This document shows, in pieces, positions 1,408 through 4,071 of a stretch of 23,841 nucleotides of DNA. The position numbers and the translations under genes were made by a program. This stretch comes from a virus. Numbering within the stretch: position 1 is the stretch's first letter; each line of letters begins with the position of its first letter. The notes below the pieces were generated by a model. The model did not search any database and was not told where the DNA came from. It worked only from the letters and a program-made list of their open reading frames with translations. Location of the stretch: IMG/VR virus record IMGVR_UViG_3300013126_003009, positions 1 to 23,841 of that record. The stretch is one strand, 5' to 3'.

Positions 1408-2665
1408 AAAGTTTCATCCTTGCTCTATCAACACCAATGACAAACTTCCTGTTGATCGATGGATCGTTGTAACGATTCTTCAACTGTTTCACCATCAATT
1501 GGTTCAGGTCTTGGAGTTCTTCTGAACTGATCAGGGCAAACATGATGTCTGCTGTTGCCGGCAATCCGAACGATTCTGATGTATCTTCCAACCCTAAATT
1601 AGTATTTGTATAGCCACTTCTTGTAGTTTGGGTTGCCGAAACAATCGGAACATTGAACTCGCCCGCCAAACCCCGTAACTCTTCTGCAATCGCTTTAACA
1701 TACGTATAAGAATTAATATTAGATCCGTGTTTGAATCTTGAAGACATACAAATATTTAGGTAGTCAATATAAAGAATATCTGGAACAAAACCTTTCTTAA
1801 CTTTCAGCTCATTTAATAAATGTCTAAAGTTTGCAGACCCTGCTGATGAAGTAGGATATTCTTTAATAATCAACCTACCTGTCGTTTTACCTCTAACACG
1901 ATCGATCTTTTTCTGATATGCATCTCGAGGAAGCATGGAAAGCTCATCAATCGTTACATTGAGAAGATTAGCATCAATCCTTTCAGCAATCTTCTCTTCT
2001 GCCATCTCTAACGTAATGTATAGAACATTGAGTCCTTTAGTGAGGTTAGATGCAGCACAATGGCACATAAAGAGAGATTTCCCAACATTGGTGCCCGCAA
2101 GAGCAATATTAAGGGTTTTGCGTGCAAGGCCACCTTTTGTAATTTTGTTGAAATAGTCGAGATCAAATGGAACCTTCTCTTCTTTTCTATGGTAGAAGTC
2201 ATATCGTTGTTCATAGTCCTCTAAAAAGTCATGCCCAATGTGTGTATCAAACGACACAGCGAGAGCATCTGAAAGTATCTGAGGAATAGCACCTTTTCCT
2301 TTGTCACCTTTACCATCTAAAATCTGGATGCTATTCATAATAGCATTGTACACAGCTTTGTCTTGACAAAACTTTTCTGTCTGATCAAGCAGCCATTCTT
2401 TATCCTTAATAGGTTCACTATCAAGGTTATCTACAAATTCCTTGACGTTCTTTACTTCATCCTGTGAAAGAGTAGTCTCTTCAAGATCTATCAAAAGAGC
2501 TTGCGTAGAAGGTTGATTGGAGTACTTCTTTACATACTGATCAATCAACTTAAACGTAGCTTTATGAGTTTGATCGTGAAAGTATTCGTCTTTTATAAAC
2601 GGGATTGTTTTTCTGAAGTATTGTTCGTCAATGATTAGATTAGAGATTATACTCTTTTCGATCAT
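1301..2665 (-). CDS. 41: replicative DNA helicase, T4 gp41 / DnaB family
   Basis: This 454-residue hexameric 5'-3' helicase would unwind DNA ahead of the gp43 polymerase and bind the primase. The N-terminal helical domain covers about residues 1-150 and the RecA-like motor follows. The P-loop GTNVGKS is at 191-197, the Walker B ILYIDY at 297-302, and SATQTTR at 343-349 is the switch-glutamine region of DnaB-type motors. The length is close to T4 gp41. The start ATG overlaps the uvsX stop as ATGA (2662-2665), so translation is coupled to the recombinase gene. Confidence 0.96.
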   Translation of the reverse strand: MIEKSIISNLIIDEQYFRKTIPFIKDEYFHDQTHKATFKLIDQYVKKYSNQPSTQALLIDLEETTLSQDEVKNVKEFVDNLDSEPIKDKEWLLDQTEKFCQDKAVYNAIMNSIQILDGKGDKGKGAIPQILSDALAVSFDTHIGHDFLEDYEQRYDFYHRKEEKVPFDLDYFNKITKGGLARKTLNIALAGTNVGKSLFMCHCAASNLTKGLNVLYITLEMAEEKIAERIDANLLNVTIDELSMLPRDAYQKKIDRVRGKTTGRLIIKEYPTSSAGSANFRHLLNELKVKKGFVPDILYIDYLNICMSSRFKHGSNINSYTYVKAIAEELRGLAGEFNVPIVSATQTTRSGYTNTNLGLEDTSESFGLPATADIMFALISSEELQDLNQLMVKQLKNRYNDPSINRKFVIGVDRARMKLYDVEQHAQNDIIDDTPSFDSTPSGKFDKSTFKDFH

Positions 2666-4071
2666 TCACCTAGTCCATATTTAAATTCTTTAGCTGCAGC
2701 TAATTCAAGCTGCTCCATTACTTCCGTTGTGTAATATTTTTCTGGATTGTTATTAATTTGTTTACCAAATGCTGTTGATCCATCAGGTAGTTCATATCTT
2801 GTAGACACCTTCTTGAAAATACCGTGCTTCTCAGCAAGTTCTAATAAACCATAATATCGATCTAATCCTTTGTCGAAAGTAAGAAGCACTTCGACTCTTG
2901 AGTGCTCTTTAGTAAACCTTGACTTTTGCATCGCCACTCGGATAATGTTTCCAATGACGTCTCCGTCTCCATCTTTCTCTTTCTTTTTACCGAGGAACGC
3001 AATAGTGCTGGCAGCATATTTGAGTCCTGAGTTGTGAGTGACGACACCGTTCTCAAGGATGTAATGATGTTGTTCTTTGACTGTAATGTCATAAACTCTC
3101 TCTTTTTCAACTTTTTTTATATAAGATATCCTCACCGAGCTCCCATGTATTTTATGTACTACAGGAAAATGTGAATTGTCAATCATTTCTTTAACAGATA
3201 CCCAGTTACCATCTGATAAAAACCTATGATCTGCTGAACATCTGACAAAAGTACCATCCTCAAATCCTACTTCAAATACATCTTTATCATCAAATTCAAA
3301 AGTATTTGTTACTTCACATTCACCATCCAGTGTTAAAACCTTATCACCTATCTTTACATCTTGAATTTCAACTAAACCACTATTTGTACGAATCTTGGTT
3401 CCTTTAACTAAGCAACCACCACCCATCTCTTTTGTTGGTACATATGATCCTACAAGTTCGTAAACGTGATTGGTAACTAACATTGGTACACCGACTTGTG
3501 CTAACTTTAATGTTAGTACTCTAAAGGCGCCTTTGATCACTTGTGACTTAGTCATATCGCGAACATCTTTGCCTTCAGTAGTATCTTCAACTTCTTTAGT
3601 TGTAGACAACAACCCTAATGAATCCAAAACCATCATCATAGGTGGTCTTGAATCTTTTGGTTGTTTCTCATAAGATTCCAAAACCTTCATTGCATGTGTA
3701 CGAAACTTTTGAATAGTATCTGGTTCTGCAATCACCACTCTTTTAGTATCGACGCCACGCTTAGACATCATTTCCTTTGTTACTGCTGCTTCAGTGTCAT
3801 AATAGATCACACCACCAGTTGGATTGTCTTCTAAAAACTGCTTAACAACTCCAAGAACAAAGAATGTTTTGCCAGTAGCGGACTCACCAGCAAAAGCTGT
3901 AATTTTGTTATTTGGAACCCCTCCATAAAGGCTACCAGATAACACAGCATTTAGGATATAAGAGCCTGTATCTATACAACCACTAAACTCAGCAGATGAT
4001 TCACCATCTTCTAAAATAGAAGTGTTTGGATCCTTAAGTTCTTTTACTAATGATTTGAAAAAATCACTCAT
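2662..4071 (-). CDS. uvsX: UvsX recombinase interrupted in frame by a mini-intein
   Basis: UvsX is the T4-type RecA/RadA homologue that coats ssDNA and drives strand exchange in recombination-dependent replication. The P-loop GESATGKT is at about 62-69 and the Walker B MMMVLDSLG at about 145-153. NHVYELVGSY leads to the glycine-rich DNA-binding loop (EMGGG...SGLKYAAS). A 128-residue intein (residues 220-347) sits inside that loop; the spliced protein would be 341 residues, typical of marine T4-like UvsX. The longest ORF begins 12 bases earlier at a TTG (4083). I prefer the ATG at 4071, which overlaps the upstream stop as TAATG and has GGGGAG just before it. The gene overlaps the helicase start by 4 bases. 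Confidence 0.95.
   Translation of the reverse strand: MSDFFKSLVKELKDPNTSILEDGESSAEFSGCIDTGSYILNAVLSGSLYGGVPNNKITAFAGESATGKTFFVLGVVKQFLEDNPTGGVIYYDTEAAVTKEMMSKRGVDTKRVVIAEPDTIQKFRTHAMKVLESYEKQPKDSRPPMMMVLDSLGLLSTTKEVEDTTEGKDVRDMTKSQVIKGAFRVLTLKLAQVGVPMLVTNHVYELVGSYVPTKEMGGGCLVKGTKIRTNSGLVEIQDVKIGDKVLTLDGECEVTNTFEFDDKDVFEVGFEDGTFVRCSADHRFLSDGNWVSVKEMIDNSHFPVVHKIHGSSVRISYIKKVEKERVYDITVKEQHHYILENGVVTHNSGLKYAASTIAFLGKKKEKDGDGDVIGNIIRVAMQKSRFTKEHSRVEVLLTFDKGLDRYYGLLELAEKHGIFKKVSTRYELPDGSTAFGKQINNNPEKYYTTEVMEQLELAAAKEFKYGLGE
3031..3414 (-). other. mini-intein inside UvsX (no homing endonuclease)
   Basis: The insert begins with Cys (codon at 3412-3414) after GGG and ends with His-Asn (Asn at 3031-3033) before a Ser +1 residue. 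These are the nucleophiles of a class 1 intein. Block A is CLVKGTKI; block B is GTFVRCSADHRFL with the conserved His of a TxxH-type motif. Block F is VYDITVKEQHHYILENG and block G is VVTHN. At 128 residues only the splicing (Hint) domain fits, and no LAGLIDADG or HNH segment is visible. Removing it joins EMGGG to SGLKYAAS, a good match to the RecA-family loop 2 consensus, so splicing is expected to restore an active recombinase. Confidence 0.95.

What the first reader, a model, noticed from the sequence alone, without database searches (positions are those of the whole stretch)
3031..3414. Endonuclease-free mini-intein in the DNA-binding loop of UvsX
The uvsX frame carries a 128-residue insert with Cys1, a block B His, block F, and terminal His-Asn followed by Ser +1. 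It sits exactly in the glycine-rich loop (EMGGG/SGLKYAAS) that contacts DNA. Removing it restores a continuous recombinase. Inteins favour such invariant sites in ATPases (established), but a homing-free version kept in a phage recombinase suggests either domestication or slow loss after endonuclease decay. It could also gate UvsX activity through splicing rate.
Basis: partly seen in the sequence, partly recalled or inferred. Interest (0 to 1): 0.7.

Follow-up and report, generated by a model that had tools for sequence, protein, structure and literature searches.

The report
Re-fused mini-intein in a phage recombinase
A self-removing protein segment sits inside the DNA-binding loop of a phage recombinase, and its closest relatives at that exact spot come in two separate pieces with a DNA-cutting enzyme gene between them, so this one is most likely a split element that has healed back into one piece after losing its mobility gene.

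Summary
Window 3031-3414 (minus strand) encodes a 128-residue class 1 mini-intein (Cys1, S60xxH63, block F, His127-Asn128, Ser+1) in uvsX. Removing it leaves a 341-residue UvsX, the same length as intein-free alleles at 98-99% amino-acid identity in syntenic contigs. AlphaFold2 gives a confident Hint fold (pLDDT 95.6) closest to gp41-1.

At this same uvsX site I found about 50 other distinct inteins, almost all naturally split: UvsX-N+IntN ends in a stop, a free-standing HNH or GIY-YIG homing-endonuclease gene follows, then IntC+UvsX-C. The same layout occurs in cultivated T4-like phages. Only four distinct inteins are continuous, each nested among split ones. The window's nearest relatives (L004, L002) are split around a GIY-YIG endonuclease.

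The window intein equals their IntN (89 aa) plus a 4-residue linker plus IntC (35 aa). The best explanation is endonuclease loss by re-fusion of a split intein. Another locus shows this route directly: L086 is 396/396 nt identical to split L091 after an exact 661-nt deletion. For the window itself re-fusion rests on parsimony; its DNA scar is weak. Purifying selection implies it splices. Regulatory gating is untested.

The parts
2662..4071 (-). uvsX precursor gene (469 codons + stop), ATG at 4071
   Evidence: phrog_97 UvsX-like recombinase E 2e-76
3415..4071 (-). N-extein, UvsX residues 1-219, ending EMGGG
3031..3414 (-). mini-intein, 128 aa, Cys1 to Asn128
3148..3414 (-). part matching IntN of split relatives (residues 1-89), 76% identical to L004 IntN
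3136..3147 (-). 4-residue linker HGSS, at the place where relatives have the IntN stop, the endonuclease gene and the IntC start
3031..3135 (-). part matching IntC of split relatives (residues 94-128), 89% identical to L004 IntC over residues 93-128; begins with GTG (Val) where L004 IntC has its GTG start codon
2665..3030 (-). C-extein, UvsX residues 220-341, beginning Ser+1 (SGLKYAAS)

Best explanation
It is a class 1 cis-splicing mini-intein in the L2 DNA-binding loop of a T4-like UvsX. By the standard chemistry (Cys1 acyl shift, transfer to Ser+1, Asn128 cyclisation) it should cut itself out and join GGG to SGL, giving a 341-residue UvsX; until then the loop is interrupted and the recombinase is expected to be inactive. 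It belongs to a family that, at this site, is usually a naturally split intein with a free-standing homing endonuclease gene between IntN and IntC. The window copy most likely arose when a deletion removed that gene and re-fused the halves in frame (89 aa + HGSS + 35 aa). Shown: sequence, fold, insertion site, empty alleles, split sisters with endonuclease, purifying selection, and one base-exact re-fusion at another locus. Inferred: that this copy splices, that the unspliced form is inactive, and that this particular copy was once split.
For: Intein motifs, profile hits and confident Hint fold closest to gp41-1. Exactly bounded empty sites in the same phage lineage. Nearest relatives L004 and L002 are split with orthologous GIY-YIG endonucleases (60.5% identical full length), SegE-type GIY-YIG/NUMOD3-like by profile, Pfam scores near the cut-offs, and phrog_314 homing endonuclease. 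Tree of 55 distinct splicing domains: window in a 100/99 group with L002 and L004; continuous state needs 4 changes, all forced by well-supported branches. With isolates and outgroups added, window+L004 is 100/89 inside a 96/87 set of 25 rows, 22 split with endonuclease. The endonucleases of L004/L002 share their C-terminal DNA-binding half with HNH enzymes at the same place in other lineages (E 1e-22 to 1e-10). L086/L110: 396/396 nt identical to split L091 with an exact 661-nt deletion, keeping 57 nt of the endonuclease 3' end out of frame. Window-specific changes 16 synonymous, 2 nonsynonymous.
Against: No splicing shown. The window's own DNA scar is weak: match of the linker to the L004 endonuclease 3' end p about 0.03, to the spacer after the IntN stop p about 0.17, none against L002. 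An AU test cannot reject L002+L004 as a pair excluding the window (p 0.40). Synonymous sites are saturated. Distant continuous inteins occur at equivalent places in jumbo phages, so the deepest state may be continuous. The continuous form rests on one contig; no second copy of its linker was found.
Confidence: 0.76

Rival explanations
1. The window intein was never split. It keeps an ancestral continuous form, and endonuclease genes invaded and split its relatives independently at the loop where endonucleases usually insert.
For: Endonuclease insertion in inteins is known to favour this one loop (PMC6801210). Two catalytic types (HNH, GIY-YIG) occur at the site. Order of window, L002 and L004 not firm by AU test. 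The window's DNA scar is weak.
Against: Needs many independent splits at the same codon range; the endonucleases share a homologous C-terminal half across lineages and L002/L004 share full orthologues and the spacer with TATAAATA. L086 proves the reverse direction at the same site.
Confidence: 0.2
2. A domesticated switch: splicing of this intein is triggered by single-stranded DNA or stress and so gates UvsX activity.
For: Precedent: endonuclease-free RadA mini-intein of Pyrococcus horikoshii, whose splicing is activated by ssDNA and tuned by the vestigial endonuclease loop (PMC5790916). The site is a DNA-contacting loop. The intein is under purifying selection.
Against: No direct evidence. 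Purifying selection is expected for any intein in a needed gene. Close relatives lack the intein with no other change, so it is not required in this lineage.
Confidence: 0.1
3. Dead or artefactual insert: a non-splicing remnant or an assembly error that joined the halves.
For: Seen in a single metagenomic contig.
Against: All catalytic residues kept, 16:2 synonymous to nonsynonymous ratio, frame intact, linker sequence not found in any split relative, UvsX extein under strong constraint (dN/dS about 0.012).
Confidence: 0.03

Closest known systems
Fractured genes: split inteins with a free-standing endonuclease gene (Dassa et al. 2009, doi 10.1093/nar/gkp095; paper not held here, known from its citation and my own knowledge)
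   Same: Same family design at the same gene site in the window's closest relatives: IntN, endonuclease gene, IntC in a phage DNA-metabolism enzyme.
   Different: The window copy is one continuous chain with no endonuclease. I could not check whether UvsX is among the eight enzyme types of that paper.
gp41-1 intein (6qaz)
   Same: Closest solved fold (TM 0.88); a phage intein of 128 residues when its halves are fused for crystallography.
   Different: gp41-1 is split in nature and sits in the gp41 helicase; sequence identity about 25%.
Fractured uvsX of cultivated T4-like phages (Yersinia TG1, Escherichia HY03, Salmonella SEA1, Proteus PM2, Shewanella Thanatos-1 and others)
   Same: Same insertion site and splicing-domain family, annotated as two uvsX pieces around an endonuclease or hypothetical gene.
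   Different: All those inspected are split; none is continuous.
Pyrococcus horikoshii RadA mini-intein (PMC5790916)
   Same: Endonuclease-free mini-intein in a RecA-family recombinase.
   Different: Sits in the P-loop, not in L2; regulated splicing was shown there and is untested here.
Mycobacterium RecA inteins
   Same: Inteins in the bacterial homologue of UvsX.
   Different: M. tuberculosis RecA intein carries a LAGLIDADG endonuclease (own knowledge). The M. leprae intein is at a different RecA position from the M. tuberculosis one (PMC5874633) and, as I recall, lies in L2; I did not test this.

Membership tests
Intein (class 1) | Cys or Ser at position 1 | tested here: met
   Cys1, invariant in the family
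Intein (class 1) | Block B TxxH-type motif | tested here: met
   S60-A-D-H63; His invariant in 21 rows; Ser for Thr as in relatives
Intein (class 1) | C-terminal His-Asn and nucleophile at +1 | tested here: met
   H127-N128 / Ser+1
Intein (class 1) | Hint fold | tested here: met
   AlphaFold2 pLDDT 95.6; best PDB matches are inteins
Intein (class 1) | In-frame insertion; intein-free homologues exist | tested here: met
   68 of 80 uvsX loci uninterrupted at this site; L006-L008 at 98-99% aa identity
Intein (class 1) | Protein splicing activity | not testable with these tools
   needs expression
Mini-intein | No endonuclease domain | tested here: met
   128 aa; only 4 residues between IntN- and IntC-like parts
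Fractured split intein (Dassa type) | Two separate chains with a free-standing endonuclease gene between | tested here: not met
   Window is continuous; L002-L005 and most relatives meet it
Re-fused split intein | Nested among split relatives | tested here: met
   but order within window/L002/L004 is not firm
Re-fused split intein | DNA scar of the lost endonuclease cassette | tested here: inconclusive
   Window: p 0.03 right side, 0.17 left side, none against L002. Clear only in L086
Conditionally splicing (regulatory) intein | Splicing rate changed by ssDNA or stress in native exteins | not testable with these tools
   bench assay needed

The most novel reading that the evidence does not exclude
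Split inteins in phage recombinase genes repeatedly heal into one-chain mini-inteins after losing the endonuclease gene, and the new junction loop in this DNA-binding site makes splicing respond to single-stranded DNA, so the healed element becomes a switch for UvsX.
Probability: 0.08. Interest if true: 0.85.

Novelty: new variant of a known kind. Interest (0 to 1): 0.6.

Why it matters
The usual account is that continuous inteins became split, for example by genome rearrangement (PMC5874633). At one uvsX site there are now empty, split with endonuclease, split with only a short spacer, and continuous alleles side by side, and one pair (L086/L091) differs only by the deletion that fuses the halves. 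That shows the split state is reversible and gives a direct system for asking what happens after endonuclease loss, and whether healing is favoured because trans-splicing is costly. It also supplies natural pairs of one-chain and two-chain inteins for protein engineering.

Tried and rejected
An intein-only scan of viral contigs found nothing because exact peptide patterns were too strict; junction patterns worked. The DNA scar in the window looked convincing by eye but did not hold against shuffles, so I demoted it. The first family alignment with short IntC pieces misaligned and was dropped. A full-precursor AlphaFold model was poor (pLDDT 62, intein region under 50) and is not used. Recent acquisition from near-identical empty alleles was rejected: exteins are 98-99% identical in protein but only 87-90% in DNA, dS 0.65-0.97. 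No clear co-conversion tract was visible. Two PDB hits to a beta-propeller (Tako8) with better whole-sequence E-values are repeat artefacts with no significant single stretch.

Full report
Observation. The window is a 23.8-kb IMG/VR virus record with T4-like replication genes. uvsX runs 4071 to 2662 on the minus strand. Positions 3414 to 3031 encode a 128-residue insert from Cys1 to His127-Asn128, followed by Ser+1. Profile libraries call it an intein splicing domain. An AlphaFold2 model from 21 window and locus sequences has mean pLDDT 95.6, and its best solved match is the gp41-1 intein, 6qaz, TM 0.88, rmsd 1.5. Cys1 and the block B His are invariant in the family.

Site. Without the insert UvsX is 341 residues and aligns along nearly its whole length with solved phage UvsX 9gbg (E 1e-132) and with E. 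coli RecA; the insertion lies in the segment aligned with RecA TTGG/NALKFYAS, which is loop L2 by established knowledge. In a scan of viral contigs 68 of 80 uvsX loci are uninterrupted at this site, 6 carry an insert at or near it and the rest are cut off or frame-shifted. L006, L007 and L008 are 98-99% identical in protein to the window exteins, share the neighbouring helicase and polymerase genes at about 95%, and align to the window up to the intein borders on both sides. They are not recent copies: DNA identity is 87-90% and dS 0.65-0.97, with dN/dS about 0.012.

The split family. L002/L003 and L004/L005 have an intein at the same site, but IntN ends in a stop after 89 residues, a GIY-YIG endonuclease gene follows (SegE-type and NUMOD3-like by profile, with Pfam scores near the cut-offs; phrog_314 homing endonuclease), and IntC starts anew. 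Patterns across the splice junctions brought in dozens more loci. Among 55 distinct splicing domains (53 at this site, two at a second site a few residues upstream, VG/SYVPTKE), 42 are split with a long insert, 9 split with a short spacer only, and 4 continuous. Of 44 distinct ORFs between the halves, motif search HNH and 3 GIY-YIG. A 45-residue IntC/UvsX probe hits 25 records of cultivated phages, mostly T4-like; all nine newly fetched ones, plus Yersinia TG1 and Vibrio vB_VmeM-32, are split with a gene between the pieces. So fractured uvsX is already in databases, usually annotated as two recombinase pieces.

Where the window intein belongs. It is 76% identical to IntN and 89% to IntC of L004. 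In the tree it groups with L004 and L002 (100/99), next to L004 (98/79; 100/89 with more columns). The continuous state needs four changes and every continuous member lies among split ones. An AU test does not reject the window as sister to L002+L004 (p 0.40), but either way its clade sits among split, endonuclease-bearing lineages. The endonucleases of L002 and L004 are orthologous (60.5%), and their C-terminal half is homologous to that of HNH enzymes at the same place in other lineages, which points to one old fracture with later exchange of the catalytic domain rather than many independent invasions. The intein shows fewer nonsynonymous differences from L004 (pN 0.077) than the exteins do (pN 0.209), so it moved between uvsX lineages.

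Re-fusion. The window intein aligns as 89 residues of IntN, HGSS, and 35 residues of IntC starting with GTG where L004 IntC has its GTG start. A DNA scar would settle the matter but is weak here: p 0.03 on the right, 0.17 on the left, none against L002. The route itself is shown elsewhere. L086 and L110 carry a continuous 132-residue intein at this site that is 396/396 nt identical to the split intein of L091, L120, L130 and L159 after removal of exactly 661 nt; the fused gene keeps 57 nt of the endonuclease 3' end, its zinc-knuckle tail, out of frame. Since that tail is conserved among the endonucleases, the direction is deletion and re-fusion, not insertion.

Function. The chemistry is inferred from motifs. 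Window-specific codon changes in the splicing domain are 16 synonymous to 2 nonsynonymous, as expected if splicing is needed to make UvsX; some of these may predate the fusion. Gating by ssDNA is known for an endonuclease-free RadA intein whose vestigial endonuclease loop tunes splicing (PMC5790916), but nothing here tests it. The full-precursor model is too poor to use.

Literature. Searches of the held library for intein or split intein with UvsX found no paper describing UvsX inteins and none describing natural re-fusion. The key paper on fractured genes is not held, so whether it includes UvsX is unchecked.

Verdict. A correct observation of a known kind of element, made more interesting by its relatives: most likely a healed split intein. 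Confidence that it is an intein about 0.97; that this copy was once split about 0.75; that it gates UvsX about 0.1.

Noticed in passing
L086 7480-7875 and L110 (same intein); compare L091 9003-10059: Continuous uvsX intein that is base-for-base a split intein with a 661-nt deletion, retaining out-of-frame endonuclease tail; the same uvsX also carries a second, split intein at an upstream site with a minus-strand HNH ORF.
   Followed up: yes
L082 1958-4459 (the L004 contig): gp41-type helicase is also broken at its P-loop by an atypically split intein (IntN about 14 residues) with an HNH ORF in between; the window helicase is intact there.
   Followed up: partly
L025 994-1585 and L080 3095-4119: Split inteins at a second uvsX site (VG/SYVPTKE), upstream of the window site.
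   Followed up: partly
L002 and L004, between IntN stop and endonuclease start: Conserved spacer with TATAAATA (resembles the T4 late promoter -10) and AGGAGGT, suggesting the endonuclease has its own late promoter.
   Followed up: no
Endonuclease ORFs between uvsX halves: GIY-YIG (L002, L004) and HNH enzymes share one C-terminal DNA-binding half at the same site, suggesting catalytic-domain exchange on a common targeting module.
   Followed up: partly
L087, L099/L141, L102/L155, L109/L118, L115, L137, L162, L180: Split uvsX inteins with only a short spacer and no endonuclease-sized ORF: endonuclease lost without re-fusion.
   Followed up: partly
L171 versus L184: Same continuous uvsX intein, but L171 has an extra in-frame stretch of about 58 residues in the splicing domain.
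   Followed up: no
L007 4023-4619, L014 4023-4616: Intein-free relatives carry a methyltransferase-like ORF of about 197 residues between uvsX and the helicase that the window and L006 lack.
   Followed up: no
L164 (Salicola phage SCTP-2) and L166 (Lak-C1): Distant continuous mini-inteins in jumbo phages; in L164 at a similar recombinase-like place, in L166 the host protein was not determined.
   Followed up: partly
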